The position numbers were made by a program, and so were the translations under genes. A stretch of DNA of 64,000 nucleotides, from the NCBI RefSeq assembly GCF_027744825.2, contig NC_071351.1, positions 12,907,501 through 12,971,500 of the forward strand, given 5' to 3'. The stretch's first letter is position 1. Each line of letters begins with the position of its first letter. Under the pieces are notes generated by a model. It saw only the letters and a list, made by a program, of their open reading frames with translations. It was not told where the DNA came from and searched no databases. Origin of the DNA: Synchiropus splendidus (lineage: Eukaryota; Chordata; Actinopteri; Syngnathiformes; Callionymidae). This document shows, piece by piece, positions 12,526 to 46,889 of this stretch.

Positions 12526-12529
12526 GCAC

Positions 12530-24799: not shown

Positions 24800-25187
24800 G
24801 ACTCGCCTGGCACAATGAGATCAAAGATGACGATTGGTGATATAATTCGTCGCATACGCGTCCGGTATGAGGCGTTAAAAGGCTTGGCATCAGCAGCAGA
24901 ACGGGGCTTGTGGGATCCTCGGAGGGGCGCAGGTTGCCCGGGTTCCACTGAGTGTTTCTTTAAGCGTGTGTGTGTGGAGTTTTCCTGCGGGTGATGGGAG
25001 GGAGGAGAGAGACTGCGCCGTGGTGCTGAGCTGAGAGCTCACCTGCACATGAGAGGGGAACTCCAAAGCTGCTGCTGCACACTCACGGAGGGACATAACC
25101 GAACCGCCGACGCGGACTGTGTGGAACTTACTCCGGAGAGCAAGCTGGTTCTGGTTCTTCACTCCGGCTGCTCGCTTGTTTGCCACC
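24800..25187 (+). promoter_or_regulatory. Proposed promoter and 5' leader of the cadherin-type gene
   Basis: Sequence before the start codon becomes CpG-richer than the flank (for example CGTCGCATACGCGTCCGG at 24849-24866 and further CpGs to 25110). There is no canonical TATA box. TTAAAAGG at 24875-24882 is a weak candidate. A CACCTG E-box lies at 25040-25045. In mammals such E-boxes near the E-cadherin start site are bound by Snail, Slug and Zeb repressors, but the sequence alone does not show that happens here. Two upstream ATGs (24994 and 25049) precede the main start. The transcription start site is not determinable by eye. Confidence 0.55.
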
Positions 25188-25198
25188 ATGAGAACTGA
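25049..25198 (+). promoter_or_regulatory. Upstream ORF overlapping the main start codon
   Basis: An ATG at 25049 in a weak context (CAC before it) opens a 49-codon frame ending in TGA at 25196-25198. It overlaps the main ATG at 25188 in a different frame. If the leader begins upstream of 25049, ribosomes that start here cannot reach the main start by simple reinitiation, so this uORF could dampen translation. The strong Kozak match at 25188 would favour leaky scanning. A separate short uORF lies at 24994-25029 (11 codons plus stop). Confidence 0.5.
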
Positions 25199-25244
25199 CT
25201 TCGCTTTGGTCCTGGCAGCAGCCCTCTTTCTGGACTCGTTTACG
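25188..25244 (+). CDS. Cadherin-family gene, coding exon 1 (signal peptide)
   Basis: The start codon sits in GCCACCATGA, a near-ideal Kozak context. The 19 codons read MRTDFALVLAAALFLDSFT: a short polar start and then a hydrophobic core of about 11 residues, the form of a secretory signal peptide. A donor site GTACGC follows at 25245, so the exon ends in phase 0. In classical cadherin genes the first coding exon is likewise very short and stops within or just after the signal peptide. Joined to the exon at 25838, the N-terminus leads straight into the prodomain cysteine motif. The donor is not a perfect consensus, but the phase match supports it. The product would be a type I membrane or GPI-anchored adhesion protein entering the secretory pathway. 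An alternative is another secreted protein with a similar two-exon start. Confidence 0.75.
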
Positions 25245-25837
25245 GTACGCTATTTTATATATGAACCGCGATCCATCGCCTTAAATGCGTCTGAAATGTA
25301 ACATAAAGGTTGCCGGGAGTAGTTTCGTGACGGGATGCGGGTCCAGTCCGCAGCTGCACCAGCGCGTCGGAGCCGGGGACTGAACCTCTATCCACTCGTA
25401 CATTTGCTGACAACCAGAACAAGAAAGTAAAATGAATCCCAGTCGCCTCCAATAATGTCAATCCATGTCGCCCGTTGAAAAGAAAAGGTGTCCCCGCTTC
25501 CATTTGCGCATCAAGTAGCGTCCAGATTTTACGCAAACATTATTTGGCATCTTCAATAGCCGCATTTCTGAGCCGAAAGTCCCAGATCAGATAAAGCCCT
25601 AAGCACTGCCCGCAAAGTTCATCCAATTTTCCTTGAGCCCCACTCAATAACCGTTTATGAACTCACCCGAGGTGCTTTTTGGTGTTGATCCACAAGCTGT
25701 TCGGAGCTACTTCAAGAGGCAAAATCCTTTGGATTCAGGATGCTTAAATGTCCACTTGCAAATATGTCTGTGCCCCCCCTTTCTGCGACAAATGGGGCGC
25801 AGTGAAGCCTAATAATATCTGTGTTGTCTTGGTCCAG
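25245..25837 (+). other. Intron 1 of the cadherin-type gene
   Basis: Begins GTACGC and ends TTGTCTTGGTCCAG, with a pyrimidine-rich stretch and candidate branch-point sequence (CCTAAT at 25808-25813) before the AG at 25836-25837. Its length is 593 bp. It is GC-richer than the flanking DNA, as is common next to promoters, and carries no repeat I recognise. Confidence 0.7.
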
Positions 25838-25949
25838 GGGAATAACGGGGCGCAAGCGTCTAAAGATCCCTGTCGCCCTGGCTTCACTCAAAGTTTCTAC
25901 TCGGTTCCGGTTTTGAAGGATTTACTGCAAAGTCAAGTCAATCTGAAAG
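25838..25949 (+). CDS. Cadherin-family gene, coding exon 2 (start of prodomain)
   Basis: An exon of 112 nt between acceptor TTGGTCCAG and donor AAAG|GTAAGA. In phase 0 it encodes GNNGAQASKD, then PCRPGFTQSFYSV, then PVLKDLLQSQVNLK, plus one base. The Cys-x-Pro-Gly-Phe motif about ten residues after the signal peptide, then about 27 residues to an exon end in phase 1, is the pattern of the prodomain of classical cadherins (E-cadherin CHPGF, N-cadherin CKTGF, T-cadherin CTPGF). The E-cadherin exon 2 is of about the same length and phase. The prodomain is removed by a furin-type protease before the mature ectodomain can mediate calcium-dependent adhesion. Residue matches to CDH1, CDH2 and CDH13 are about equal, so the paralogue is unresolved. 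The remaining exons are not in the window as far as I can see. Confidence 0.78.
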
Positions 25950-28900
25950 GTAAGATTGCTTGTCTCTTGAAGTCCGACTGGACTCGCTCCATCACAGATG
26001 TATTTTCTCTTCTCAAATGTATTGAAGCATCAACACACCAGCCTGCACAACATGGTATCAAAATACTTTTTTTAAAAAGGCGTCACACAAGATCCACACC
26101 CGTTTTTGAACCGTCACTGTATGCAATACTAGTATTCTTCAACCTCATTTATGCTCAACAGCTGCCACAAATGTTTCATTTTTAAACGGGCGACACACAA
26201 ACCCTCACACACGCCGGCTCCCTACACATGTTGCTCCAATTACACAGTGAGCAAACCAAGTTTTAGGGCCCAATAGTGCAGGAAATGAAATCGACATCCT
26301 GTGTCTTGCATTGCGGCAATCTTGCACTGCTCCTGCCAAAGTGAGCTAATTGCAATTCTCCATTGATCTAATGGGTTTTTTTTTTCTCACTGCTCAGCTA
26401 AACTGTATTGTTTGGCTGTGGGTTCACAGTGGCTCTTCTGAGGGTTGACACTGTCCTGGGCAGCGGTACAGTATATATTTCCCCTTTGCTGTGAGAAAAG
26501 CGGCAGCTGTCTCCCCACACACATCACACTTTAAAGAGCTATGCTCTGTCAGAGTGTGTGTGTGTTAAGTGAGGAATTGATTCTGTTTGCTCTCCACTGA
26601 TATTTGTCTTTGAAAGATTCGTATCAGGCTTGGAACAATGGTGCACGAGCAGGTTGTTCATCACATGGTAGTGGAAATATCAGCCCAGTAGGGGGTGTCT
26701 CAATACAATCCCAATGAGTTGTCACTGCTGCACTGAAGTGTTGATATTAGTGCAGGTGTGTAGCGATGGAAAGGATCGAGTTTTCTCATTCAAATAACCT
26801 AAAATTGAATTCACAATAACTATGTGTAAAGTAATCCCCTTTAATCATGTGCTACGCTATCATGGTTACGCTGTTTGTTTTTGAAGGATTTAGCCAAAGT
26901 CACACTGGATTATCTTGTCTGTGGCAGTGTTGCCATGTGTGTACCACACACACACACACACACACTTACACGTGTGTCACGCTTGATTAACACGGCTCCG
27001 GCAGTTGATTTATGAGGGGTGAGTATATCACTCGAGGGAGGTGGATAGCTGCTGTTGGAGAGCCCAAATAATATCATTGTTTAACGCAGAACCTTCAGAT
27101 GGAGTGCAAGGGCAGCAATGAGTCCTCTTATGTGTGCGGCCAGACGGAGAGACATTTATGTGGGTATGTACTGGCTATCAGGGGAATACAGGCAGATCAA
27201 GGACCTTGGCTGTGATGGGGAGGATGTCTGGGTGGGACTCAAGGTCACCGAACAAAGACTACGTTTGTCTGCCTTTTCAGAATACAACTTTTTCACTGAG
27301 AATAAACTATGATATACATATATGGAGACTGAAGCTGGCAGGTATTGATGATACATGACCATCCAACTCTGCATAAATGTCCGGGACGTTTGTGAGGCAA
27401 CACGAAACAAGCCAGCCAGTTGTCCCAGGAGCGTGACTCAAGCAACCTCAGGTGGTGCCTGAGAGGATCATCATCTGACATACTGGTTGTTTTTGAAGTG
27501 AGATTCTGATGCTACTATCAGATCTGATGACGCCTTTATATCCCTCAAGCTAAGAACTTAATTAAGAATCTGCAAGGCTCAAGGTGTGAGGCAGAATGTC
27601 TCTTGAGATCCTGAGGTAGATACGATTTAATTTAAGTTAATGGTGGTGGGATTGCTTTTTGTTTTTCACGCAAGAGTGGCACAGTCTAATGAGACATAGT
27701 TTGCGAATGACCAGCTGTTAAAAGAGAGATAAAAAGAGAGCGCTGGACAAACACAAACACAGTTGTCAAGAGTCCATTTATTGGGTACTCTGAAGCCATC
27801 TACTTTTTATTATTTTAGAAAGCCATGCAACCTGAATTAATGATTTGTATAAAGTGGCCCTATCTGTCGCATTAAGACCTGCGCCTTCCTACCGTCTTAC
27901 ACGCAAATGCACTCCGTTCCAGAGGAGTCGCCAGGCAAATGATGCCATTTTAAATCAAAGCACACTGTCTGTGACCCACATTACTTGAGCGTACCCTTCC
28001 TGCCACCTTGTTTCCTCTCATTTTCCACTCAGAATTCCTTCTCGCTGTCGCCCATTGCTCGGAGTACCGAACCCCAGTGCTCGCATGAAGATGTGAGGTT
28101 TTCAGCTGTGCACTCGTGCAGCAGGAATCTCCACGGCCCGGGGTGTCGTCTCACTTGCACTGCCATAGAAGCTTTGTTTTTTGCTTCAGGGTGTTGCTTT
28201 TTCAGAAGTCCATCTGTTGCTTCCTTTTCGCTTTGTGAAAGCAGTTTCGTAATTATAGCACTCTTGTGAACGTATAAACCGTTCCCATCGGCAGATCAGT
28301 GCATCGGATTCCTCGCCGCCTCATCGGAGCTCTCCTTCCAGCCTTGAAAGTGAGACACTTTAAAACCTTATAATCTAAAGTAAACGGATTCATTCTTTGC
28401 TTTAAATTATTAAGCGGTTTTATTCAGGGCCAAATGTGCCCAGGAGCTGTCTAATCTCTAATCTGAGATATGTTTGATCTGGTTTGGGTGGCTATAAACT
28501 GGATGCTTAATCAGCAGAACCTTACTTATTGAACACCATGAGTGCACATTAGCAAGAACTCCTCTGTGACTCATCTAACTGTTTGTTCATTTCAGCCGCT
28601 GCTGCCTTCCATGACTGAGTATAACCCTCAAACATCTCTCATCAGAGTTGGGCAAGACGCTCAATGACCACCTCTCATGGCACTTAAAATGAAATGCACC
28701 CCCATATTTTTGGTGCAACAAGTCCATTTGCAAAGGAAAGTTGTCCCGCTCCCTTCCTCGAGCACATTTAAAGAGAATTAGATTGTTTTCATTTCCTGTT
28801 TACCTTTTGCCCCAAATCTCATAACACAGAAACTACAGTGCTATCTGGGTCGATCGCAGCCAGACGTTCTCATGGATTTTTGATATTGTGCGAATATATA

Positions 28901-29132
28901 GTCTAATTTGTTTCATCGTGTTCCTTCCTGAATCTCTCTTTATTACTTTACCTTTTGCTGTGGTGCCGGGTACACATCTACCCCAGTGATATATGCCTCC
29001 CTTTATCTTTTGTTTTTCTGGGGAATTATTGATGTATGACATTTTACGGCTGGAAAAAAAATCCCTTCATCCTGTACAACGGTATATAAAACAGACATTC
29101 TCTCATGGGCGCACATGCTTTTAGGAATGTTG
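25950..29132. other. Intronic stretch, no further feature recognised
   Basis: Apart from the CA tract, no transposon, exon or RNA gene was recognised. The open frames at 27118-27410 overlap on both strands and lack any domain. Confidence 0.4.
26945..26965. repeat. CA microsatellite
   Basis: About ten uninterrupted CA units, followed by TTACACGTGTGT. Confidence 0.95.
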
Positions 29133-29360
29133 TTAAAGGGGACCTATCATGTCTTTTTTTAATTGTAACGGAAGCTCAAGTCCCTACTGAGTATCTGAGC
29201 ATCAAAACAGCCATGAACGTGTTTATTGAGTAATGTAGTTTACTATAATGTCTGCTTCACTGAAAAGGCAGTTCCCAACAGTCTATTGAGTCCACTGAAA
29301 ACATGAATTGCTGTTGCATTTAGAGGAGCTTTGAGCGAAATGTTTGTGAGCTTGACAGGC
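29133..29360 (+). repeat. Terminus of a TTAA-associated dispersed repeat
   Basis: TTAAAGGGGACCTATCATG at 29133-29151 closely resembles one end of a very abundant vertebrate MITE type that begins TTAAAGGGGACCTATTATG. The TTAA start suggests piggyBac-type insertion. I could not find the matching right end, so the 3' limit is a guess and the copy may be truncated. Confidence 0.45.
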
Positions 29361-32163
29361 CGTCAGAGAGCGACACCCTTCATGCAGTATTGTTCCCTTG
29401 TGTTTATTTTATTTCAGTCATTAGATAGTGTTTGAAACATGAATTAACCATTGTCAGTCAATTCCTCTCTTCTTTCTTGGGTTCTCCAGCTGAAGCTTGA
29501 ATCTCAAATGAGCGTAACAAATTTTCCATAAGATTCTCGGTTCCCATTGGCAGTCTGGAACACCACTGACTAAGGTAAAAGTAATAAACTATGTGTCTAA
29601 GTTTGATACAATGTTGTTAGGGATCATTTCAAGACATCGGTTTGATTCCTTCCACTTGACTTTGTAACGTTACAAAGTGCGTCACCTTTCAGGAGAACTT
29701 CATTGAGACTCAACATTGTCTCAGTTAAGTCTTTACTGTAGGTCATGGACTCCATCGATGCAGTGGTAGAGTTCTCCAGGGCCGCGCGTCCCATCATGGC
29801 TACTAGTACTAGTGATATCTTTTTAACTCCAATTCCACGGGATTTCTCCAATTAAATGTCTGGGTACATAGATCTTTGTGGCTTGTGCCACCGTGTGTAG
29901 GCCACACCAAGGTACTTGTTGGTATCACAAAGAACACTCAGGTGAGGAATTCACCGGGCAGGGAGACCAGTGTGCTGCTCTTGAAATATTCCCCGACATG
30001 TCTCATCCAGTTGCTTCAAAGAGGTGCATTTTGAGCTGAAGCAGGATCATCTTCCCTGTTAAGGTCATAATAATAATCGCATTTTGAGGTTTCATTTATC
30101 TTCATCTGTTGGAGTTCAGTTTGATTGATACAGTTTTGGGAAACCATGTCGCGGAACAATTATCTGTTTAGACCGGCTCGATGGGTGGTGTAATGGGCAG
30201 TGGGCTTTGATGGTTCTGGGCGTCCCACAAGCTTTTCGTGAAGTCATTTGATTGGCAAGCATGAGAGGATATGTGAGGGAAAAAAATAGCGGAAATAATA
30301 ATGTAAGCAGGGGGAGGTCATTTTACTTTAATGAGATTTTTGACATCTTCAGATGTGGGACAAAGAAGGGAGGCTTTAAAGACAGCCTGCAGATGGAGTC
30401 TCTCTGTGGTGTGCGCGAACTCTGCTCCCTTGTCATCTGTTGGCGAACTTAAAGAAAAAAAAATAAACAAACACCTGCCTCGATCTGACGGGCTTCCTCG
30501 TAACCTACTGCACAAGGGTCACGTCTCCTCTGAAAGCATGAAACCTGCCTTAATGCTTTGCTTGAACACAGATGGTCTGTAGAGATGTGAGGCTGAAGGT
30601 GCCAAAAGGACACAGCAAATTCATCCCTGTCCACGTTTTCTCCTCAGTTTACCTCTGGTCATTTCTCATTTGGATTATCAGAAAGACTTGAAGCCCCCCG
30701 CTGCATTTGACCCCATTTATGGGGTCAGACTTTGGAAGTGTTCACCAACACAGAAGTTTCAAGTGAATGAAAAGTCTTCAGTTCTGGACCCTTCATTTTG
30801 GTTCTAAGAATCACAACAGAGAGAAGACGACTCAACCGTGTGTTTATAGCAGTGGGCTGGGTATCGCTATCCAACTGTTCATTAACTCTTGACTTCGTCT
30901 GGTTCTGTCGAGCTGGAGATCAGATGATTGTTCTTAATGAAAAGACTTCTCCTCATTAGAACCTTGTAATCAAGCTGAAGTAGTAAATGATCTCTCTGAG
31001 AGCGAACCGAGTACAAATCCATGAGAATTACGGCCTCATCTACTATTCCCTTTGCTGAGACATCCAGCGTCTTTGTTACGGGAGGATGAAACGACGGAAG
31101 CTCTCCGCAGACTTAGCTGCCTGCGAGTCACTAATTGTGTCCTGAACTCCCTGTGAATGTTCCCCATTACGTTCCTCAGTTCAGCACACAGTCGAATCCT
31201 TGCCCTCAAACAGGCGAGTTTCCCTGGAACACTGGGGGTGGAGAGAGAGAGTAAAGGATGAAGGCGTTGGGGGTCGCCAAACAGAGCACCAGTAATGTTA
31301 ATTAATCAGAAGACAATGATGAGTCTCTTGTGTCTGGGTCAATTCCATTCAAGCGGGTGAAAGCTAATAAGGGTTCAACAAAGGTGTGTTCTGTTCGTGC
31401 AAACAATGGCCAATGATTCAGGGCCCAGATGGATGGCCTGATCTTCATTGCTATTGTATCAGGCAGTTGTTGGTCTGAGCCTATTCGTCCTGGGTAAAGC
31501 TGTTTTTTCATCTTCAATCGGATCCTATGAACAAGTGTTAGATGGTATTGGTGAGCGTTACGTGGGTTACACACAGTAGGGTAACAGGGATGTTTTGGTC
31601 CTAGTTTTTGCTCAACCCAGCGTGGCCAATGCCTGATTGTGTTATCTCCAATAAGATATCTCCATACCTTCGTCCTGTGGTCCGAGGTGCGGTCCGCTTC
31701 CTTTAAGTGTCCGGATGTCCATGCACAACTTTTACTGTTGTTCTTGTCCGGTAGACAACCTCCTAGGTGGTAGATGGACAGTGCTTTCGTGTGTGAGGGG
31801 GAGACATTACAATCACCGCCCGATTTCTTGCTCTTTGTGTGACAGATATAAAAGAGAAGATCTTTATGTGTATAAGTAGAAGATGGAAGATCATTTGTTT
31901 TTTGAAACAGATAAAAATAGGTCTATCAATTGAGTAGGCGAATGCCAGGGCGCTGACACATCACCTGCCTGGAGGCGTGGATCAAGATACCCTACCCCCA
32001 AGAGCCTTTAGGATGATCTGGTGGGAGAAGAGAGGTGAACAAAGTATGATGTAGATTTTAATTTTAAATCTCTTGAATATAAACCTTTAAGCGCAAATGT
32101 TATGGCTCTGTATATTCTTTACATGGAGAGGTCCAAAATGCCAATAGCGTTCTACCACTTAGT
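29361..32163. other. Intronic stretch, no feature recognised
   Basis: Short chance frames only. Nothing could be assigned. Confidence 0.4.
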
Positions 32164-32289
32164 CTGGGCGTCTGAATGAAAAATGGACGCCCGATTCTCG
32201 ACCAGATTACGCTGGTATATAGCGGCATCTGGCGGGCAAGGTATGGTCGAATTGGGCATCCATTTTTTTCATGTTTTGCAGACGCCCAG
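32164..32289. mobile_element. Palindromic MITE-like element, copy A
   Basis: The ends are perfect 11-base inverted repeats: CTGGGCGTCTG at 32164-32174 and CAGACGCCCAG at 32279-32289. The complementarity continues inward for about 40 bases with small indels (ATGAAAAA, TGGACGCCCGATT and CGACC on the left against their complements on the right), leaving a loop-proximal core of about 40 bases. The whole unit would fold as a long hairpin. A second copy lies at 39519-39675 in opposite orientation. No coding capacity is present. I do not recognise the family. Confidence 0.75.
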
Positions 32290-35200
32290 ACGCCCTCCTA
32301 GCCACCAGTTGGCTGCTTCCATGATGTTTGGGGGAGCCTCAAGGGGAAGTGATATTTTCCAAAAAAGGTGTGTGGCCCTGCTGTCAGTGCGGTGAAATGT
32401 CACTGCCTCGGTGTGGTCAAACTTTATGACTAAAATGCAGCGCCTTCTTGTGTTGCGTGATTAGGCTGACAAGCTTTTAAAGTCATGCTGGCCAGAATCT
32501 TTTACTTCTTCTCCTCATGTGTCTGTTGTCTTTTCAGCACATCAGAAGAAGAGCCAAAGAGTGAGGGTAATAAAAGGCCCTGCGTTCTCCTCTGGGCCCT
32601 GCAGAATGTAGAGAAGCTGATAAGTTGTCTCGCTCGCAGTCTGAGAATGATCAAAAACAAAGTAAATCCGGTGGCCGCCGAGGGAATGAGCTGCTGTGAG
32701 GGAGCGAAGGAGGGAAGGGTATCGAGAGGAGAGAGACAGAGTGAGAAGGAGGAGGGCTGGAGGAGAAGTCACGCTGGGGAGAGAAAACGATGTTTGCTCT
32801 CGTCTGGTGCAGATGAGGAGCTGCATGCAGGTTGGGAGGATGCAGACGGCCTTCTTCTTTTCTTGCTGTAAGCTGGGACTTAGGTGGACGGAGTGACATG
32901 TTAAGCCTGGTGAGAACTCAAAGTGCAGGTGGTCTTGGGAAAGATTGACATATTGTGACTACGTGCAGAATTGTCTTGCTGTAAATATATTAGCGGCAAA
33001 ATTTCGAACGCACACGGGCGGATGGACGCTCACTTATTTATTGTCCCGAGAGACAAGAGGTTCTGGTGGGATTGTTGGTGCGTGAGCCGAGGATAGTCAT
33101 TATCGTATCCCCAGAAAGGAAAGGATTACAAAGCAATATAGTAATCCAGCTGTCAATCATGCACCTCATTATTCATCATAGGTGGAGTGGGAGGTGAGGG
33201 GCAAGGAGCGGACAATGGGGAATAGGTTGGCAGCGGCCAGTGCCCAAGTGAGTGGGGAGAGGAAAGAAGTAGAAGAGGGATGATGGCGTTAATAAGGGTG
33301 CGGGAGGAAGAGGAAAGGAGAGAAAAAGGGGGGGAGGAGCAGTTGAGGTAGCAGCTTGCTATTCTGCTCAGGGGCCTCTGCACAGAGTTTTTATTAAGCT
33401 TTCATCTGCATTTCCTTTCCTCCTTTTCCTCTCGCTACTCCTCTGCCCCAGCAGCAATAACAAAGGCAGATGCAGCAAGTGCTAGCCATGTCAGTCACGT
33501 CTCAAACCCACATATCTGCTTGTAATTCCCCGATTAATTAAGAACAGTGATTTGTTAATTTAATTGTAGGTGTCGGGTGTTTTCATGCCCCCCCCCCCGC
33601 TTCGCTTTCTTCTGCCTCTTGCTCCCTCTCATCCGCTTGGCAGGCTAATTTGCCCTGCAGCTTTGAGAATGGGAAATGAAAGGAATAGCTGAGGAAGCCT
33701 TCAGATGGTTTATTAAGAATCGATTTGCCACAGTGGCAGAGAGACGGGCTGTAGGGAGATACATGGTGATGTGCCTCCCAGGCAGCCACCTTAGGCGGCG
33801 TGGAGAGATTATTGCGATACTGTCACACCACCGGAAAAGTTCTCCAGTTTTTCAGCGCGACTGAGATCAGCGATATTTTTACGATTTCAGGCGTGTTGGC
33901 GCCGCACAGCGTCATTCAAAAAATGTGACCAATTGGATTGACGTGCCAACAAAATGCAGCGCTCAAGAAACACAGGAGGCGCTGTGACCTGTATTTGCCC
34001 CTCTGTCACCTCCTTTAAACTTTAATATAGGCGGGAGCAAACAGTTTGTTGGCTTAGGTGGCAGTATTACTGAGGGACCTGTAGTTTCATTCCCTTCGAA
34101 GTTATCTTGCAGTGACTTGCAGCTCTGTTTCATTGCAATATAAGGGGCGTTGGCTTTGACAAGATGCACTATGTTGGTGGTGTGGTTCTTTTGGTTTCTC
34201 CCTCTCATCGTGGATGATGTCTTTCAAAAAAAGTGACAGATCAGAAGCAATGACAGTTCAAAGCCCAGACTAGAGCATGGAAGCTGACCCCCTTTTTTTA
34301 CATCCACGTTCTTTAACTGTATCAGTTAAAGTTGCACATTATGTTTCCTCATTCATGCCACGTGTCAAGGAAGACTGTGGTCACTCTTTCTTATGGTATA
34401 TTGTGTTTGATTCAGTCGCTTCATCTGTGCAGGATGGTTTTCTTTCATCAGGAAACACGTTTCTCAGCATCGCTTTCCTCAAACTGTGCACAAATTATTC
34501 ATTGTTGGTGAAGTTAAGCGACAACAATTTGACGGCTCCTGTTGTGTTTTAAGGAAATGGATTTAAAATGAGGTCATGTTTGTTGTAGTCCTTGCTTGTC
34601 ATCAAATCGTGCGTGCGAGTGGAGTTAGTGTTGTTGTTTCTCCACAGTGTTGTTGTTTCTCCACACCCTTTCTGAATAAGATGATCACAGAGAAGGAAAG
34701 TGGAAAGCCAGACTGAAGGTCTCATCGTGATACAGTTTGAAATCAGTGACAGTGGTGTTGTTCATGAAAGCAGAAAATTACAATGTATTTTCGAACCCTC
34801 TGATATCCTTTTCCATGATGATGGGTTTGTTTATGTTTGCTGCTGTTGTGTACTTGTTTGTACAGCAAGCAAGGATAAGATGGAAATGAATCAATGTAAA
34901 ACAGCTCAGCATATTTGAACCTTTTTCTCCCAAAACATGAACTTATATTCTGAGTATTTTTTTGTTTTGTTTTTTTGCTTCTGTTTGGGGGTTAGCATTC
35001 TAAGTAAGCGCAAATAAAATTCATTTCATGCTGTTCTTTTCTCCCAAGGATGAAGATAAAAAAAAGAAAAAAGAAAGCTTTAAAAGAAAATAGACTCCGA
35101 ATTTCGATGGAACATATTCATCTATGGTTACATTTCAGTGGGTTTTATAGAGTAAAGTAAAAAGGGACCTCTCACTCAACCCTGGAATGGTGCTTTGCTT

Positions 35201-36559
35201 TATCAATGTGGCGGAGAGAATCTGTAGCTGCTGTGACCCTGTTAAGAAAATAAGTGGAAGGTGATCTTTTTTTTGTCACTGATGGTATCGAAATGTCTGT
35301 TTTTGGAGTCATGACCAGTCAACTTTTCCTAATATGTCTTTATCATTGAAAAATATGTATTCATAAACGTATTTTTCAGGATGAAAGTTAATTCAAACCA
35401 TGGATCTCTGTGGTGTACATGTATTCATACATTTGAAAAGGAAGGGAAGAATGCATGAATGGAACTACTCGACCCAGAATGCATTTGCATGATTGCCTGA
35501 GTGTGAATTACCATTTCCTGCTTCGCACAGTGAGGCAGTGTATGTAAATGCAGGCGAGTCCAGATATAGTGTCACATTATATTTGTTAATTTTTACGTCT
35601 TTGTGTTGTGTGTCGGAATGGCATTTCTGCGTCTGAGAGCCAGGAACCGTGCCGAGTGTGTGTTGCCTTTGCATGTCAGCAAAGAAGTGATTTGTCCGGC
35701 AGATGCAGACTAATGAATGAGGTGTCCTGCTTGTGGGCTGATATTAGCCTGGGTAGCAGTTCCTTTGATGTGATTAGCTCCGCGCTCTCTCTTGACAAAT
35801 TGGGCTGTCCCGTCCTGGCAGCCCAAACACTCGCTCTCTGACAAGAACAAAACCCAATATTTCCTCATAATGGATCACGCGGCGACGCATGTGCATGTAC
35901 TGTAGCGCCGTGTGTCGTCCGACAGATTGGCGCTGACGCCGCCGCCGATTTATTTGATTTACAAAGATCATTTTTCCTTTCTTTGTAAACATTCGGTGAT
36001 AAACGATGAGGCTGGGCGCTCCAGTCATAGTTGAGAGGCTATTGTTAAAGCTCAACTTTTGTTCATACTCAGAAGTTTAAAATTCATCTAAGCAATTTAT
36101 CATTTTGTTTTTTTTCTTTTTCAAGTCCCATCCTATTTCACATCTACGTGCTCTGGTGACCGTTCACGTACTGTATCTTTCCACTGATACACAGATTTAC
36201 TCACCAACAATGGAGTCTCTCTGGCATTGGCATTCCTTCAGCTGAGTCACTCAAGTCTCTCCATCATGAAACCCTTGTCAAAAACACAACTGTTAGTAGC
36301 CCTAAATCCATCCTACTTGAATTTGACAGTGAGGCTTCTGACTGAGGGCAAGTGCATCAGCCTATTGCTAACTATTCCACACTGTAGAAATGCTGCACCC
36401 ACACCAGCAAGCTAGCACGCTTAGATCCTGAGGTAGGCCCTTGCTATTCGTCCCTCAATTGAGACTAACCTTTGCTGTCAGGGGCCCTTGACTCTTGATC
36501 AATTTGCAGAGGCGGTTCAAAAGACAACCCCCACCTTTAGGACACTCAAAAACATACCA
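32290..36559. other. Intronic stretch with purine-rich tracts
   Basis: Long purine-rich runs occur at 32690-32770 and 33280-33345 (GGA/GAA-rich). The open frames over them come from this composition bias. TTGTCTTTTCAG at 32527-32538 is a fair splice acceptor, but what follows does not encode cadherin prodomain. A/T-rich sequence occurs at 34950-35090. Confidence 0.45.
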
Positions 36560-36730
36560 TGCCAAGTTGATTTATAAAGCACTTAAAAAGCAATGCAAGA
36601 TTGTCACTAAGTGCTGTACAGCAGTAAAGTCAGGATAAAACAGACATTAAAGACAATACATACATAAAGTTAAAACAGGGCGGATAAAACAACAAAAACA
36701 AATTATTAAAAAGATCAGCTGTGTGGTTGT
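36560..36730 (-). mobile_element. LINE 3' tail (antisense orientation)
   Basis: On the + strand, TTGATTTATAAAGCACTT, then CACTAAGTGCTGTACAGCAG, then A-rich sequence with ATAAAACA words matches the common fish repeat in which an L2-like element's 3' untranslated region reads inverted (a TTTATAAAGCGCTTT-type terminus). The neighbouring minus frame to 37048 shows no reverse-transcriptase boxes. Only the tail appears preserved. Confidence 0.5.
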
Positions 36731-37109
36731 ATAAACACTCAAAAACAGATTTTTATTATCTTGCATGTCCTGCTCATTTCTCCTATTGGTCAGAACCTTG
36801 TCATTTTTGTAACGTCTCAGACTGTCTGTTGAACTGTGGCCACGTGAGTCAGTGAAATGCCTGAGTGCTCCAAGATGGTTGTGTTTGCCACAATAGAGGT
36901 GCAGAAGATGCTTGGAGTCAATGGGTGGAGCAATTTTTGTGACCAGCGAACATGACGTCCCATGTTTGGAAGGGAAAATTGAAGTGTTCAGTGTGCGACG
37001 GTTATTGGGAAGTGCTTTGATTTGTTGTTTCAACGCTTCTATTGTCAAGCACGTATTTTAGAATGCAAAGGAACAAAGTGTTTTTTTGGCAGTCCACCTG
37101 CGTACAGTG

Positions 37110-37807
37110 CAGTGGGACCTCGGTTTTCGAACTTCCCGAACAAATCGGAGTTCGAACAAAAATTTCTAGATTTTTTTTTGCTTTGGATTTTGAACCAAAA
37201 TCCAGAACTTGAACGCCCACGAAAACGTGCGCGGACCGACCAGCTGACCCACGACGTGGTTTGTTATTGTGTATAACACAGCCTCTATTTGCAGACGTGT
37301 CCCGTTAGCTACATTTACTGGCATTTTTTTACTTCACATTGAGGTGTAAAACCTTTCCTGTCTCCACACTGGACCGTGGTAGAGTGTCACAGGGGAGGTG
37401 CTCGCTCTCCACACCTCCGAGGCTGGAGCGCTCACTCCAGGGTTTGATGTTGGAGCTGGGACAGGGATGAGGCGAGTCTGGGACAGAGCGTTACTTGGTT
37501 TATGACTTTGTCACAGCCAAACTGCACAGAAGCGCACATTCAGAGCTGGACACGCACCGGGCACCTCTTCACTTCTGGAGAGACGTCACTCACTCAGCAA
37601 CCCCTCCCACATGCAGCGGCCACACACATAGAGGAACAGCGCACCTGCAGCAGACACTCTACATTCACTCCTACAAAAGCCTATTTTAAGGCTTGGAACG
37701 CATTATTTCTTTTTCCATCCATTGTAATGGGAAAAATCGATTCAGAGTTTGAACAAATCGCTTTTCGAACGGCCGTCAGATTGTGGTCGAGAACCGAGCT
37801 ACCAATG
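37110..37807. mobile_element. Non-autonomous DNA transposon with terminal inverted repeats
   Basis: The left end is CAGTGGGACCTCGGTTTTCG, continuing AAC. The right end, reverse-complemented, is CATTGGTAGCTCGGTTCTCG, continuing AC. These imperfect inverted repeats match a terminal motif common in vertebrate DNA elements (CAGTGG-ACCTCGGTTTTCGAAC). Subterminal blocks also pair: TCGGAGTTCGAACAAA near 37146 against TTTGAACAAATCGCTTTTCG near 37747. TA follows the right end, consistent with a TA-targeting Tc1/mariner-type insertion, but the left flank is TG, so the duplication is not confirmed. The 698-bp interior has an open frame (from 37502) without transposase motifs. Confidence 0.65.
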
Positions 37808-39518
37808 TATTTCCGTTGTGTTCCGGTCTCTCAGGCCATATGATAGACTCAGAAGTGTCTCACGTGGATGTAAATGTCGTGATGACCACGCGTCAGAAGG
37901 AATGGCTTAAGTGAAGACTTGTGCAGCTTTTCAATATCATATTTCTGCCGGCGAAAGAGTTGGTACTCGAGATGCACTACCTCTATATAATGAACCTGAA
38001 AACTGACGTTTAAATCCTCTGTTTTCAGAATGACTGAAGTGTTTTTAAATGAACACACATGTAAGTTCATCCCTCCTGAAGCTCTTTGGAGAGCATCTCT
38101 GCACTTGGATTTAACTCCATTGCCAGGCGATAATTTAACCCGTTGACTCATGAAAGTTTTATGAATAATAAACCAAGTCATTTCCGCTACTTAAGATGGC
38201 TTTTAATGAATTAAACAGTCCCTGGATGGGTGACCCGCAGCGGAAGACAAAGAGGTTGCATAAATGACACTTATCTGATAGACTGTCCTTAATTCAAGCA
38301 CGACAAGTCACCAGAGGGAGAGGGCGTTCATCCATCATGGAAATGGAAGCTGCACTTCATGTGAAGACTTTTATCAAGTAAACATTCACCCCCTTCCCTT
38401 CACAAGTGGACACTCATCTTATTGATTTTCTCTTTGGTGTGGTCACTCACTGCGGAGCGTCTCAACTTACCTGGCTCTGACAGGACAATGCTGCGACGGA
38501 AGGTCATTCAAGGACAGATTAGGATTATCATTCCTGACTTTCTTTTCATACTTCGCCAACTCCCGTGCACATTCCGATCCCTGTGTTGATACAGCTGGCG
38601 ACGGCAACAGCCTCTCGGACAGGATATTAATCTCCGGCTTGTTTCTGTCTATTTTCATTGTGCATTTGCGGATTACTTGGAAATGTATTTAAGTCGCGCA
38701 TCCAAGTGTGTGTGCACGCTCAGCACACTGGGAGTTTGCGGTGTTAGCGCCGCCACTGTCTGAGCCCTGGTAATTACTGTGGTTCACTGCCTCTGTTGAA
38801 GTCAATGAAGCTGAACTCATTGTGTCTCTCTGTACATGGAAGACACAGGCAGCGCCTTGTTTCCTCTCACTCACCTCCACAGTTGTGTACTTCCAGGTGT
38901 AATTAAACTTCTTAAAAATATCCATGTATTCTGCGTTGAAATTCAATAGTGCCTTCTGTTGAAAGTGGCTAACAGCAGCCTAATCAAATTTTCAGCTGGA
39001 AGGATTCTTCATGAAAGTTTAATGCGTTTTAGTTGGAAAACGAATTAGTCACCATTCTTATTTCTTTTTATTAAATGCCACGTGGATCCCCTTCAGCTGT
39101 GTGTACAGTCACTCTGCTACAGCACTTCTGAGAGGAGGAAGGAAATGACACCCCGAATGTTGTTTTTTCCTCTTTTAAGCAACGGCAAGAGTCAGTTTTG
39201 GCCTCATCCAATTGTTTGATGTGGTTGAGAACCATAGGGAGTCAATCACCCACTGAAGCTTAAATGAATATGATCAACATGTTATGAAACTCCATACATA
39301 ATTTTTAATATGAGTGTACTTTACTATTAAAAATAAAGGCTTGAGAAGGAGCGATTCTAATTGCACTTCCTGTAACTGTTTGGATGAAATTTAAAAAATG
39401 AAAAGAAGCAAATTAAACTTGTGAAATGTTTCTATTATAAAAATATGGAAGTCGTAATGCCCAACAGTAGAATATTTCTGCATGTTCAGTTTCATAGTTT
39501 CACACCAGGCTTCAGGCT
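37808..39518. other. Intronic stretch, no feature recognised
   Basis: No repeats or exons that I can name. Confidence 0.4.
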
Positions 39519-39675
39519 TCTAGCAAGAAGGGCGTCTGGGCGTCTGCAAAACATGAAAAAATGGACACCCGATTCTCGACCGTAGATGCCGCCATATGCC
39601 AGCGTAATCTGGTGGCCAAGTTATGGTCGGAAATCGGCCGTCCATTTTTTCACGTTTTGCAGATGCCCTCCTAGC
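39519..39675. mobile_element. Palindromic MITE-like element, copy B
   Basis: The arms begin GGGCGTCTGCAAAACATG (39538) and, on the other strand from 39668, GGGCATCTGCAAAACGTG. They stay complementary for about 44 bases (roughly 37 matches), through GAAAAAATGGAC and CCGATT to a GACC. The core (AGATGCCGCCATATGCCAGC, then GTAATCT) is the reverse complement of copy A's core with few changes, so the two copies are inverted relative to each other. Outside the arms both ends carry CTAG (TCTAGCAAGAAGGGCG and GCCCTCCTAGCT), which probably marks the true termini. The left arm has a tandem GGGCGTCT duplication that is also seen in copy A. Confidence 0.75.
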
Positions 39676-41239
39676 TAAAAGCCAGCCAGGCTTGCGACGG
39701 CTGGATGGATCATAGTAGGTCAGAAGGGCAGCATCGGGCTCCGGGGTCGCACTTTGCTTTGCGTCAAATGCCTTGCAAGTAACACGAGCTGCTGGACACT
39801 TTAAAGGTTCCTGGATTAGTTGGTTGTCATTCAGGGACTACGACTGTGCTTGTAAAGAACGGCCGCGGCGTGCAAACTGTATTTTGTGTTGATGAAACAT
39901 TTGTCCTTTGTTCCCCATTTTCCACGACCTCCTGGGATATCGGCCTTCTAAACTCGGCCAGCAGGAACAGACGTTCACACTCAAAGGCTAATGGAATGCA
40001 TGATTCTGCCGAGAGCTTCGTTGCCTTTTCGTTGTTGCACTGCACTGCTCCTTTATTCATGCCCCAATGAGGTGGTTTTAGAAATGGTTATTTGCCTCTG
40101 CGTGTCAGTCGGGTGGCTGCGGCGGCTCAAATGGAGAAAGGCTGCAGGGAGGCCACAAAGCACAATCACATTGTCATCCTTTAATGGAGGCCAGGGACTC
40201 GTCATGTCTCATGCTCTTCTTTACAATAGTCATGGTCTGTCTTAAGACTCATTTATTGTTTCCCCAGGCTGTGTTGTGAAAAAACAACTCTAATGATCAT
40301 GGTATTACCCAGTGGGTTTTGGAGACTGAAAGAAAAAAAAATGTCTTTGCATAACCTCCCGAATGACCTCGGGGTGTCAAGCAACCTGTTGAAGACGGAA
40401 GTGTTTTTCAAAGGACACCTTCAAATACTCATTTATCAGCAAAAAACAGCCTTCAGGAAGTCATGAATGGATTTTATGTGAAATTGAAGTGAACATGTTT
40501 GACTCCATTAGAGCGGCTGAATTATTACTCTGACTCTGTTCATTTTTTAGCAGCTGTTTCAGTGCCTCACTTCACTTGGTCGTGCATTTTTTTTTCTTTT
40601 CTACCTTGTGACCGCAGTAATCGTGACATCATTTGATAAAACGTCTCAGAGCCTGGGGAAATTTAAGATAACCGACAAGGAGAAACGCGCAATCATGGAT
40701 GGCGAGGGTCTGAGAAAAGTTAATTTGCTCTGGTAAATACCATTGTAATTAGCCGTAGCGTATAATTTCCTAATTTGGTTTGACATTTTAGAGAGTAGCT
40801 GGAGGTGTGGGGAGCAGTTTACAGAATCCTCGTGTTAACTCACTTCCAACTTCCTTTTATTTTCCGTGCGGCCTTGCCACTTTAGGGGAGTCATTGCAAA
40901 GTCTTTGGCCTTGGTGACTCATTTTCATGCAAAGCTCTTTTTCTCCGGAAACGCTTCAAACTGTATCTTGTTTTCCTTTCGCTTCGAGTTTGTTTCTTTT
41001 TGCAGCTTCACAGAGAAATACTGTGTCGCGATTAAATCATGAAATGTAGCTTCATTTTATTGTGGGATTGATTTACAATTGTGAGTCAAATAATTCACCA
41101 TGTTTTCAATGTTGGAAACGTCTGGATTTGGAACATAAACCTGAATAGATGAAGACATGTTTTACAGTGCATCAACCAATCAGAGCACAGACTTTACGGA
41201 TGCAGGGGCAGCTAAACGGAAGAGATGCTGATCCTAGCA
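39676..41239. other. Intronic stretch, no feature recognised
   Basis: No supported feature. Confidence 0.4.
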
Positions 41240-41242
41240 GTT

Positions 41243-41490
41243 GCTTACATTCTTACCATACTCATCCAAATCTTTTGTTACATTTAAGTCAAGTGGCGTT
41301 TCCAATCCGCCATATAAAGATTCATCTAACTTGAGACCCGCCTCTAGATTGGCAGGTGTCACCAAGTCACCTTTAGATCTATATGGCGTGCGACTTCTCA
41401 TGACTCCCAGCCGATGGCACTTTTCCTTCCACACCGTAATCCTGACATCAAGTATATCACAGGTGTCCTTTTTTGCAAAAATTCCTAGAT
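41243..41490 (-). pseudogene. Unidentified reading frame, possibly a decayed coding fragment
   Basis: The minus strand is open from about 41490 to 41234 without an internal stop. It reads FAKKDTCDILDVRITVWKEK near its start and LYGGLETPLDLNVTKDLDEY near its end. Composition is charged and protein-like. I recognise no domain. The + strand is also open across the same span, which argues for chance. There are no convincing splice sites at either end. Listed because its composition differs from most frames here. Confidence 0.25.
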
Positions 41491-41573
41491 AACAAAGTCA
41501 TGGCTTCTGAGCTGAGAAACTATTGGGCGGGAGTCGTGCGTCCGCCGTGTTGGAATCACCCTGGTGATGAGTT

Positions 41574-41880
41574 TCAGTGGTTATTTATGAGGGCATGCTT
41601 TGTTAGGGCGACGACTTCTTCTTCGTGAGCTCTCCTCCCTTTCACCTTGAGCATCCTCCATATTGACACCCTTCCTTTTCCTTTCCTCCGAATGTCTTCC
41701 CTTTTGCTCCTCTCCACATGGCCAAGCCACCTGAGTCTGGCCTCCCTGAGTTTCACCCTGGACTTTTTGACTGTCAAACCTGGGCCTTTCTGGAGCTTCC
41801 AGTCTTTCATAGCCTGCTGAGGGAGAAGAAGTTTTTGCATCTCATGTATATTGACAGCCAATAGTAAACAGTCGTCGCTA
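41574..41880 (-). mobile_element. Possible LINE C-terminal fragment
   Basis: The minus-strand frame contains KLREARLRWLGHVERSKRED at about 41755-41696. This resembles the [RK]-L-[RQ]-W-[LFY]-G-H-[VL] box found downstream of the reverse-transcriptase domain in several animal non-LTR retrotransposons. The residues after it are basic and unremarkable. No FADD box is nearby, so it is a short relic whose family cannot be named. Confidence 0.5.
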
Positions 41881-41989
41881 ACCATTCCTTGTTGACTGCA
41901 GCGTTTCTGAGAATCCAATAATCTCTGCAGTTGAAAGGAGATCAAAAACGAAAGGAGGAAAAAAACCAGCGCCATCCCTCTATTCATCT

Positions 41990-44900
41990 GGCCTTGGCTG
42001 TCTCTAGATCAATCTCTGTGTTTCCTGCATTCACATCCCTATTTTTGTCTTCTCTTATACAAAACGCTTTCCTCCTATTTATTCATTCAGGTCGTCTTGT
42101 TGCAGCAGTTGACTTTCAGGATTCTTTCCGTGATCGTTCCTGCGGTTTGTCTTCACAAGCTGAACCTTTTGACCTTCTCGATTTCCCCCAACCATGAAAT
42201 CACTGTGGGGTAGCTTCACTGTCTTACCTGTCTCTTTGGTGGAGCCCCAGTCAGCAGTTTTTTTTTCTCCTTCATGTGAAGTCTGAGGGAAGAAACCAGT
42301 GGCAGGTATATCAAACTCATCTGGAAAAAGAACCAAAGCTTGCGGTGTCAGCCACAAACATCAAAGATACCCTCGCCAGGGGATAAACACCGCGATCAAT
42401 GCAGAGGGCTGTGTATGAGTGAGACTGCCAGTGCCATGGTTGGTGGTTTGTTTTTAGGATTCAAGCAAGCCTCTGTTTATCCCGAAGGAGTTCAACTCCC
42501 GCTTCAGCACCCACTGAACTTTGACATATTGGACCATTTGTAGCACTGGGGATATAAGCAAAGTGAGCGGCCATTTTACACTGAGGGAATTGTGCTGCTC
42601 AGGTCTCTATGGGTTTCATGTTTGCCAGTGTTTGTAGCGCTCTCATTATCCAACTCTTCACCAGGTCATTACAGCCTTGTTTTGATTGGAAAGCCTTTAA
42701 TTAGTTGCTCATTAGCATTGTTTAATTAAACTCACCCCACGCCTTTTAAAACATAGCGATGCTGTTTGTCCATTTTATTAGATCATCAAGAGAAGATGTG
42801 TGACCGCCGGCGAGTCAGTGGAAGATGACGGTCGGAGCCTGATATTGAGGCGACGTGTCTGCAACTAAGAAAGGATCCGACTGCATGAAACTACAGTGCT
42901 CATGCACTGAAAGACTCAATGGATCTCCAGGGGATGAAAAGTAGTGGGATAAATAAAACAAAGTTTTATAACAGATTTGAGGGAAAATGTAGGAAACAAC
43001 CTGTTTGAAAGAAAGGCCTTCAGAACTTCACAGTGGAGTAGCTGGAAAAGACAGATGGCAGAGAATGCCAAATGCTTTAGCAAAGGCTCTTGCATTACTT
43101 TTTTGTCTGTCAAGCTCTTTCCTCTGTCATTCTGTGTCTGTCTGCTGCCTGGTTATTTCTCTATTCTCCGTCTTTCAGTCTCCTGAAATCTTTCATGCAG
43201 CCTTCCGCCTGAATTCTCCCCTACACTTCTACAATTCTTTATCTCGGCTTATTTTCTCTTTCAGTCCTTGTCCAGCTCCAGTGAGTGATCGCCGGTGCAG
43301 TTCATGGGTGGATTTGTTTGCGCTTGTGCGTACATATGGACACAAGTCCAACAGTCAAGGTTTTGTTTTCCCCTCACGTTCTGGTGGAGAGTGACCGAGA
43401 ACAAAGCGTCAAGTGTCTGAGGGTGGAAAGAAAGCCTTCCCGAAGTGCCAGTCCGGCGGTGAGATCTAAAACACAGGGAGTTCATAGCTATGGCCACTGG
43501 CTGAAGGCTGTTGATGGAATAAAAAAAAAGTCTACCGAAGCAACATCACAATTGGGGACAAGCCAGAGCTCCAAAAATCATATGACACTTACTAGAGCAT
43601 TTAAAATCACCATTTCTTCTACCGAAGGTGTCAAGTGGACTTTTGTGTGTGGCTGGTGATGCCATCTGAGTTGCATGCTGATGCTATAGGCAACTGAATT
43701 TGAATCAAACATTTCCCCACCTGCAACATTTCCTGACACTGTTTCTTCACTCCCATGGCGTAATACATTGACATGGACGTTTGCGTCCTACGCCAAAGGT
43801 AGCCGTCCATGTTGCATGTTGACACATAGGCATTTCAGTGGAGTAAAAATACGTTTTCCTTCCCATGAATTGTTCCAGGTGGGGATGTGGATCACCCCTT
43901 ATTGTATTATAAGTGACGGAATATATAGTGTGCCATAGTCACACAAGGTACTCCATGTGTCAAGTGACACTGTATCATGATCCTCTCACCTGAACAATTG
44001 TTTTTGAATGTCAGGAAATGCTGACAAACTCAGGGAAGACATTTGATTCCATTAATACCCCATTGGAGGCAAACTTAATAATTGTCAATATGTGGTTCAA
44101 TGAAATTTTCACATTGAAAATTGGAGCTAGAATAGGTGATGCGCCATATACAACTGTGTGTGGCACAAGCAAGTTCCGGAATAGCCACTTGCAGTACCAC
44201 TGACGTAATTGCTATGAAAGATTTGAATGTTTTTTTTTTTTTATTTAAAGCTCCTTTTCCATAGACAAAGCTCTTAATATAATTGAGGCTTTTGATATTC
44301 ATTTCAGTCTTTGTCACATGACATTGGTCCAGCGTCATGTCGCATGCTCACAGTGCTGATGTACCTGAAAGCTTATATTGAATTAAGTCATCCTGTGTCT
44401 AAACCCCTTCGCTCTCACATCCTCCTCGAGCTGAGCCTTCTTCTCTAATTCTCTTCCTATGCTGCACCTGCATATACATTAACCTGCCATCGTCTCTCTT
44501 CTCTTCAACATGAATTTAGTCTGCGCACATCCGTCGCTCATCACCTTCTCCCTTTATCCTGGAATTGAGGAGCCAGCCGCGATGCACACGGCAGCACTTC
44601 ACTCTCTAAATTAGAATAAGTCAGCAGCATTTGTTCTCCACCAAAGCTTCCCAACACTTATGGACGCTTTATTCAAAGCACAGAGTTTGAGGATTCGTAT
44701 GATCAAACATCAGTCAAAAATGGCTCCACTAAAAGCTTTTGAACAAAGGTGGCGACAGAAAATGCATATTTGATAAAAATAGAAGCTGGACTCCCCGTTT
44801 AAAAGTGGATGTGTAGCACTATGCAAATATATATACACACAACTCTCCCAACTTCAGCCGCTCTGACGCCTTTTTTTGTGTGCGTTGTAGATTTTAAAGA

Positions 44901-46317
44901 CGTTTTCACGGGTGAGTGGGGGGCAGCAAAAGCTCGCTGATGCATCACGCTCATTTAATGTAACATTTAAAGGAACCAGTCTGCAAGAGTTGCCAGAAGC
45001 ACAATGGAGGAGGGATTGAAAAGGGGTGGAGAAAACGGCGGCGTGGCATCGTCAGCAGTTTCCGTTGACTAGACAGCGTGTGAGAAAATGAGAGATAAGC
45101 CAGAAGCCATCAATTCATTACTTCACGTATTACTCATTTTCTGCTCTCCCTATACATCGCTGTAACACCACTCCATCAATTCTTCCTTGATCTCTCCCTT
45201 GCTGAACATGAACCTGGATTCTGAGGAGTCTTGCAAATCACGCTGAGCGAATGTTTCCTGCCGCTTATTGACAAGTCAGACTTCATGCGTGCGTGTGTTG
45301 GGAGTTCAAAGGGGCAGGGTGTGGAGCAGGTTCAGGGTTTTCTTGCACCATCAGCAGGGCTATATTGGCTCTGGCAGAGATGCTTCTCAGCGATTTCTGC
45401 CATATAAAGAGTTAAGATGGCTCCGCTCTTGACTTCTGCTAATCCTATTACTTGTGAGTGCTGCTCTTAGTGGGCTCCAACCTTACTTTTATTGGAAATC
45501 CTCTGGCGTTATAAAGCCTTTTAGCCTTTGGCGGGCTATTGCCCTCGTAAATCTAGTTCCAAGTCCTGGAGCTATTCCCTCATATTTGTACCATCACAGT
45601 GTTATTTAAACTGTAAACTCCCTTCATATACTGACAGAGTCCTTGTGGGTGACATCTTTGTGTGACGCAGGATTCAATAATTGCTGAGTAAAGCTCACAT
45701 TTGGAGTGATGTTCTGACAATTATGTGACAGCAGAATGCAACATAAGGCTTTTTTTTTGACACACTATGAGTGCACATGCTGTGCGGTCATCCTCACACC
45801 TGAGTGGTGCCTAGTCTCCTGCAACTAAAGTCACTCCCTCCAGCTTCTCAAGTCGCCTTAGAAAAGTAAATAATATGCGGGACTTAAGCTAGTGGAAAGT
45901 CCACATGGCGGCTCAGTGAGGCCGAATTGTCTATTGAAATCCAAAAATGTTATAGATGGGGCCTTTTCTGGCTCCATTAGATCATTCGGAGGTGCCATCA
46001 GCTCAGTCTTGAATGTGAGATGATCTTCAAATCTGTGCTCTGATTGGTTAACATGTCACACCAGGGATCAGATTCTTCAACTGGAGCATTTGAAGTAGCT
46101 GAAATGTGTCACTGGAAATGCACAGAAACATGTTGCATCCCATGTTGTCGGGTGACAGTTGGTCACACGGAATTGCACCGCTGCATGCGCTTTCTGTATA
46201 TCAGTTGCTTTTGGTGCGTGCATCGTATTTGTTGTGAGCATTCCACTTGAGTCTATAAACAAAAATATACACGTATAGCAGACTGTAAAAATACTGTAAA
46301 CTATACAACTGACAACG
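41990..46317. other. Intronic stretch, no feature recognised
   Basis: Pyrimidine-rich tracts ending in AG occur (for example before 43265), but the following sequence does not fit the expected cadherin exon. A T-run lies near 44230-44242. Confidence 0.4.
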
Positions 46318-46889
46318 CGGAGAAGCAGCGGCTCTACTTCGAGTCTCTCCCGAGTGACTGAACTTCTCATGGTATCTCGAAGGAAGACGCCCGCCACCCG
46401 TCGCAGAAAACTCATTTCAACCGCTTGTGTCCGGGTTCTTATTCTTTCGGTCATGACCCACAGCTCATGACCATAGTTGAGGGTTGGGACGGAGATTGAT
46501 CGGCAAATTGAGAGGTTTGCCTTTTGGCTCAGCTCTCTCTTACACACAACAGTGCGGTAGAGCAACTGCAATACTGCCCTTGCTGTGTCGCTGACCAATC
46601 TCGAACTCCCTTACCGCCCCCACTTGAGAACAAGACAGACAAGACAAGACACTCATTCCTCAAAGAGAGAGCAATCCACCCTTTTCCAGTTGAGAACCAT
46701 GGCCTTGGACTTCAAGGTGCTGATCCACATCCTAGCCGCTTCACACTCAGATGCAAACCAATCCAGCGAGAGTTGATGGTCGCACCCTGATGAAGCCATG
46801 CAAACCACATCATCTGCAAATAGCAGTGACTGAATCCTCAGGTCACCAAACCGCAAACTTTCCCCACCAGAGCTGCGCCTCAAAACCAA
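46318..46889 (-). mobile_element. Truncated LINE reverse-transcriptase fragment
   Basis: On the minus strand, 46889-46653 encodes FGDLRIQSLLFADDVVCMAS, which includes the FADD catalytic box, and then CEAARMWISTLKSKAMVLNW. After a stop and about 50 bases of unrelated sequence, the same frame resumes (46598 down) with VVCKRELSQKANLSICRSIS, VPTLNYGHELWVMTER, FLRRVAG and SSVTRERLEVEPLLLRV. Homology stops at about 46318. This protein type is very frequent in fish genomes. The segment that normally joins the two blocks is missing, so there is an internal deletion plus truncation at both ends. Clade not assigned (RTE/Rex3-like is possible). Confidence 0.85.

What the first reader, a model, noticed from the sequence alone, without database searches (positions are those of the whole stretch)
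25188..25949. Two-exon 5' end of a classical-cadherin-type gene
Signal-peptide exon in a strong Kozak context, a 593-bp phase-0 intron, and a 112-nt exon with Cys-Arg-Pro-Gly-Phe ending in phase 1. Seen directly: splice signals, phase agreement and motif. Established knowledge: classical cadherin prodomains start this way and share this exon architecture. Inference: this is the 5' end of a cdh1/cdh2/cdh4/cdh13-like gene. The exon-2 residues after Cys-x-Pro-Gly-Phe are unusual (QSFYSVPVLKDLLQSQ), so it may be a fast-evolving or fish-specific paralogue.
Basis: partly seen in the sequence, partly recalled or inferred. Interest (0 to 1): 0.75.

Follow-up and report, generated by a model that had tools for sequence, protein, structure and literature searches.

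The report
Start of a fish R-cadherin gene
The stretch is the true beginning of an ordinary, already annotated fish cell-adhesion gene (cadherin-4-like, one of two fish copies of R-cadherin); the one small surprise is a tiny extra exon in its huge second intron that many ray-finned fish have and that was not seen in the land vertebrates checked.

Summary
Exon 1 (25188-25244) and exon 2 (25838-25949) begin a complete classical-cadherin gene that leaves the window. I found the other 14 exons in the same genome: C18:12932688-13083772, 151 kb, 2,766-nt reading frame, 921 residues, all splice phases in agreement. The gene is cdh4 (R-cadherin): 99% identical over its full length to 'cadherin-4-like' of the dragonet Synchiropus picturatus, in one of two teleost cdh4 clades that split after gar; the second copy is on C6. 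Beyond the finding: intron 2 (91.8 kb) holds a 24-nt microexon encoding DTAVSSQK (C18:12992999-12993022), included in the annotated relative. An insert of this kind is in 38 of 54 script-readable ray-finned cdh4 rows, from both copies, and in 0 of 28 readable tetrapod rows. The library searches listed no report of it. No RNA reads were available. The gene itself is ordinary.

The parts
24900..25187 (+). Probable promoter / 5' untranslated region with locally raised G+C and CpG
   Evidence: CpG observed/expected 0.86 and G+C 0.549 at 24900-25500, against 0.57 and 0.433 for the window. Transcription start not located.
25188..25244 (+). Exon 1 coding part: start codon and signal peptide MRTDFALVLAAALFLDSFT, phase 0 end
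   Evidence: Sequence; same residues start the annotated cadherin-4-like of Synchiropus picturatus
25245..25837 (+). Intron 1, 593 bp, phase 0, GT...AG
25838..25949 (+). Exon 2, 112 nt, start of prodomain with Cys-Arg-Pro-Gly-Phe, phase 1 end
   Evidence: Pfam Cadherin_pro 66.0 bits when joined to exon 3 against 42.4 without; the C6 paralogue has an exon of the same 112 nt, 43-44% identical
25950..64000 (+). First 38 kb of intron 2 (91,782 bp in all); the microexon (C18:12992999-12993022) and exon 3 (C18:13025232) lie beyond the window

Best explanation
The stretch is the 5' end of the teleost cadherin-4-like gene (R-cadherin, one of two cdh4 copies kept, I infer, from the teleost genome duplication) in a dragonet of or near the genus Synchiropus. 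Exon 1 sends the protein into the ER; exon 2 with exon 3 makes the prodomain, which keeps the precursor non-adhesive until furin-type cleavage at RLKR|DW exposes the Trp-2 end. The mature protein, with five calcium-binding repeats and an HAV motif, joins cells by strand swapping and anchors to catenins. Gene structure and homology are shown here; the function is established knowledge of classical cadherins. An in-frame 24-nt microexon in intron 2 can add 8 residues between the two prodomain cysteines; that it is optional in this species, and that it tunes prodomain folding or export, is inference.
For: Complete 16-exon model with consistent splice phases and no internal stop, 921 aa. Pfam: 5 Cadherin stretches, Cadherin_pro 65.7 bits, cadherin tail 102 bits. 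PDB best match N-cadherin ectodomain 3q2w, 846.9 bits, then EP-cadherin 1q55, 679.2 bits. Best protein match 99% identical over 100% to cadherin-4-like of Synchiropus picturatus; then, for example, Perca cadherin-4-like 89% and Pelmatolapia cadherin-4 74%. Tree of 33 rows: window gene inside the cadherin-4-like clade (7-row set 100/99), C6 copy in the cadherin-4 clade, both within teleosts after gar. A cadherin-2-like gene of the same genome is a different locus on C13.
Against: No RNA reads were available; the exon 2 to exon 3 join over 92 kb rests on phase, profile score and the annotation of a relative. The deepest fork of this clade has only 81/67 support, and three rows (Chanos cadherin-4-like, Brienomyrus cadherin-4-like, Denticeps) have long branches that the tool flags as unsure in place. 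Exons 1-2 alone match nothing.
Confidence: 0.97

Rival explanations
1. It is the 5' end of another classical cadherin (cdh1, cdh2, cdh13).
For: The first two exons alone do not discriminate; N-cadherin is the best solved-structure match.
Against: Full-length identity and tree place it in cdh4; a cdh2-like gene lies on C13 with an exon 2 of 103 nt and a tail of N-cadherin type (the type is judged by recalled N-cadherin letters); the protein has a membrane span and a cadherin tail, which cdh13 lacks (recalled). The tree held no cdh1, cdh3 or cdh13 row.
Confidence: 0.02
2. Exons 1-2 are a chance exon pair, or belong to a separate short gene, and the C18 cadherin uses a nearer first exon.
For: The intron is 92 kb; no reads tested.
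Against: Only one such exon in 264 kb on both strands; +23.6 bits on Cadherin_pro when joined; the annotated relative has the same N-terminus; the C6 paralogue also has a remote 112-nt exon 2, about 150 kb from its exon 3.
Confidence: 0.01
3. The locus is a decaying duplicate (pseudogene).
For: It is one of two copies and its exon 2 has drifted.
Against: Open frame in all 16 exons with GT/AG at each junction; the 99% identical relative P0002 is 87-90% identical to the eight next rows of the alignment, all spiny-rayed fishes.
Confidence: 0.01

Closest known systems
cadherin-4-like (cdh4, R-cadherin), Synchiropus picturatus, P0002
   Same: 99% identical over the full length, same N-terminus
   Different: One substitution (Ala24 here, Val there) and it includes the 8-residue microexon that my 16-exon model leaves out
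Second teleost cdh4 copy ('cadherin-4'; C6 in this genome)
   Same: Same exon 2 length (112 nt), remote exon 2, similar tail; matched exons other than exon 2 are 47-93% identical
   Different: Exon 2 only 43-44% identical; separate clade. Only exons 2, 3 and 9-16 of the C6 gene were read.
Cadherin-2 (N-cadherin), PDB 3q2w and 1op4
   Same: Five repeats, prodomain, DWVIPP start, HAV
   Different: Different clade (fish cdh2); the N-cadherin prodomain 1op4 has an 8-residue gap where the microexon lies

Membership tests
Classical (type I) cadherin | Signal peptide followed by a cadherin prodomain | tested here: met
   Cadherin_pro 65.7 bits, cut-off 23; hydrophobic start FALVLAAALFL (no signal-peptide program was run)
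Classical (type I) cadherin | Furin-type site directly before D-W (single Trp-2) | tested here: met
   LRRLKR|DWVIPP in exon 4
Classical (type I) cadherin | Five extracellular cadherin repeats | tested here: met
   PF00028, 5 stretches, 295.2 bits
Classical (type I) cadherin | HAV motif in repeat 1 | tested here: met
   HLRAHAVDMNG in the translation; role of HAV recalled
Classical (type I) cadherin | Membrane span and catenin-binding tail | tested here: met
   PF01049 102 bits; hydrophobic stretch IISILICIIILLCMVLLFVVW; catenin binding itself not tested
Classical (type I) cadherin | 16-exon layout with 5' exons of this phase pattern | tested here: met
   16 coding exons and phases; exon 2 of the C6 copy 112 nt, of the C13 cdh2-like gene 103 nt; the vertebrate pattern itself is recalled
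cdh4 / R-cadherin | Falls inside the cdh4 clade, apart from cdh2 | tested here: met
   33 rows = 31 of the 120 proteins listed, plus window and partial C6; two fish cdh2 rows were the only outgroup
cdh4 / R-cadherin | Calcium-dependent homophilic adhesion | not testable with these tools
   needs experiment

The most novel reading that the evidence does not exclude
Ray-finned fishes carry an old, alternatively used 24-nt microexon in the prodomain of R-cadherin, between its two conserved cysteines and just before the V-x-F residues. It predates the teleost duplication (the insert is in sturgeon, paddlefish and reedfish proteins), was kept in both teleost copies, and is absent from the tetrapod cdh4 rows seen. 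It may tune folding, ER export or furin cleavage of the precursor by cell type.
Probability: 0.45. Interest if true: 0.4.

Novelty: already known. Interest (0 to 1): 0.17.

Why it matters
The gene is a textbook adhesion gene and is annotated under this name in many of the fishes listed. The value lies in showing that a tool-free reading of two short exons named the right family, with its other exons 92 kb and more away outside the window, and in the microexon: a switch inside a domain that is cut off before the protein works would point to control of cadherin delivery rather than of adhesion itself.

Tried and rejected
Tried without result: the 56 residues alone against Pfam, PDB and the protein database. 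Rfam on the window at gathering threshold: no match. Paper searches on cdh4 and its duplicates, and on a cdh4 or cadherin-prodomain microexon: nothing on the microexon in the listings (one search listed 20 of 36, 12 of 17); the single 'microexon + CDH4' paper (PMC13254117) was seen in the listing only and by title and abstract start concerns RAS-driven senescence. Microexon splicing cue: the nearest upstream TGC begins 47 nt before the exon, pyrimidine fraction 0.90 at the acceptor, so the UGC cue next to SRRM4-type neural microexons (recalled) is not evident. Structure model of P0002 from a 30-row alignment: mean pLDDT 62.3, pTM 0.29; too weak to place the microexon residues, so no fold search was run. 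Of the ten prodomain places I looked at L009, L012, L015, L016 and L018 and, as part of the gene, L010's place; L011, L013, L014 and L017 were not examined. L018 (C1, E 2.2) was dropped: no C-x-[PATS]-G-F exon was found in it and its centre runs into a VCVC repeat.

Considered and rejected: other cadherins, pseudogene, chance exon pair (see rivals). Species: the nearest protein is Synchiropus picturatus, but one residue differs, and the assembly is 583 Mb against 483 Mb for S. splendidus (PMC8664458, abstract), so I name only 'Synchiropus or close'.

Full report
What is there. The window is G000:C18:12907501-12971500 of a 583-Mb genome. At 25188 an ATG in GCCACCATGA opens a 57-nt exon (MRTDFALVLAAALFLDSFT) that ends in phase 0 at GT; after 593 bp an AG opens a 112-nt exon (GNNGAQASKDPCRPGFTQSFYSVPVLKDLLQSQVNLK + 1 nt) that ends at GTAAGA in phase 1.

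The rest of the gene. Pfam searches of the whole genome found a Cadherin_pro match at C18:13025219 and a cadherin tail at C18:13083578, both on the same strand downstream. I fetched 200 kb around the window in 20 stretches, located exons with tblastn using a recalled N-cadherin query, read the splice sites and joined 16 exons: C18:12932688-13083772, 2,766 nt with stop, 921 residues, every junction in frame. Exon 3 starts with TG, which completes the G left by exon 2 to GTG (Val). Intron 2 is 91,782 bp. Pfam on the joined protein: Cadherin_pro 65.7 bits, five Cadherin stretches, tail 102 bits. In the PDB the best of 188 matched sequences are N-cadherin 3q2w (846.9 bits) and EP-cadherin 1q55 (679.2 bits).

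Is the 5' pair more than chance? In 264 kb on both strands the pattern AG / open 85-155 nt with C-x-[PATS]-G-F, phase 0 to 1 / GT[AG]AG occurs at this exon only, plus a longer reading of the same donor. Exon 3 alone scores 42.4 bits on Cadherin_pro; with exons 1-2 66.0; with five shuffled versions of exon 2 43.3, 41.8, 42.4, 48.0 and 46.1. The C6 paralogue has an exon 2 of the same 112 nt, 43-44% identical.

Which cadherin. A search of 5.8 billion proteins gave 1,340 matches (of 7,991 candidates scored), best 120 listed; the best is cadherin-4-like isoform 1-T1 of Synchiropus picturatus, 99% identity over 100%. It begins with the same 56 residues except residue 24 (Ala here, Val there). A tree of 33 rows (31 of the 120 listed proteins, the window protein, and a partial C6 protein; 932 of 1,238 columns; cdh2 of two fishes as outgroup) puts turtle and mammal cdh4, then sturgeon and paddlefish, then gar, outside two teleost clades; the window gene is in the cadherin-4-like clade and the C6 copy in the cadherin-4 clade. 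The second clade has 99/99 support. The first has only 81/67 at its deepest fork; the forks from Chanos down to the 7-row set that holds the window gene are 99/96 or better. Chanos and Brienomyrus each have a member in both clades, but one of the two in each case is flagged as a long branch. I read the split as the teleost genome duplication (inference). The dragonet branch is 0.10, against 0.014 for Perca, 0.047 Mugil, 0.081 Fundulus, 0.079 Gasterosteus and 0.11 Syngnathus: not exceptional. The odd KDLLQSQ in exon 2 stands where most cadherin-4-like relatives have RDVLQGQ or similar.

The microexon. The annotated relative has eight more residues, DTAVSSQK, between exons 2 and 3. A back-translated pattern finds exactly one match in the 264 kb on both strands, inside intron 2 at C18:12992999-12993022...TTCATCTCCAG|ACACCGCCGTGTCATCACAGAAAG|GTAAGA; of 349 AG-24-GT sites in intron 2 it is also the only one that fits a looser residue pattern. 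Being 24 nt in phase 1-1 it can be used or skipped without changing the frame. Among the 120 listed proteins, 77 could be read at this place by script and 43 could not. I grouped rows by the names. Insert of this kind: 38 of 54 ray-finned cdh4 rows (36 at the standard spacing, 2 with one residue more), 14 without, 2 with other spacing; 0 of 17 tetrapod cdh4; 0 of 6 cdh2. Of the 43 unread rows I printed 18 more and four; by eye reedfish Erpetoichthys (P0072), Megalops atlanticus (P0045), Siganus (P0067) and Brienomyrus (P0091) carry it too, and the others start inside, lack the region or are unclear. A second search with residues 15-125 of turtle cdh4 (24 matches of 70 candidates) let me read ten more tetrapod rows without it (8 new, 2 unread before), including a frog (P0129); a lemming entry (P0130) has a longer unrelated insertion, and one row (P0131) lacks the region. 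So of 28 readable tetrapod rows 27 have no insertion and none has this one. Rows are 90%-identity clusters, several from one species, so an isoform can hide inside a cluster; no shark, coelacanth or lungfish row was seen. The solved N-cadherin prodomain 1op4 aligns with an 8-residue gap at this place.

What it may do. In desmocollin-2 the prodomain is needed for transport to the membrane: C32A/S, F71A/S, V52G, G77V/D/S and V79G were not found there, while C57A/S did not differ significantly from wild type (PMC10235514, abstract, section list and passages). The microexon lies between the two matching cysteines (Cys31 and Cys62 here; the matching is my inference). An effect on folding or export is a hypothesis. 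The predicted structure was too weak to add to this.

Verdict. The gene is ordinary; the microexon is a modest lead. In the open-access library, searches for microexon with CDH4, with cadherin and prodomain, with cadherin and zebrafish, and R-cadherin with alternative splicing and prodomain showed no report of it in the listings; subscription papers are mostly not covered and supplements were not searched.

Noticed in passing
G000:C18:12992999-12993022 (window coordinate 85499-85522, beyond the window): 24-nt microexon DTAVSSQK in intron 2 of this gene; inserts of this kind are in many ray-finned cdh4 proteins of both copies and in none of the 28 readable tetrapod rows.
   Followed up: yes
G000:C6:3485107-3726640 (-): Second cdh4 copy; exon 2 and exon 3 about 150 kb apart; exons 2, 3 and 9-16 read.
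   Followed up: partly
G000:C18:13125722-13130950 (-): Another cadherin-type gene on the opposite strand about 42 kb downstream (desmocollin- or cdh26-like by recall; tail match 27.7 bits).
   Followed up: partly
window 11342-12575 (-): Broken LINE-like reverse-transcriptase pieces (RVT_1 25.3 and 20.3 bits, below the cut-off of 29.6; ALKBH8_N 52.6 bits).
   Followed up: partly
window 46077-46610 (-): Open stretch of 177 aa that looks LINE-like to the eye; no Pfam match.
   Followed up: partly
G000:C11:4.33-4.71 Mb (-): Large array of long open frames with cadherin repeats, probably clustered protocadherins.
   Followed up: no
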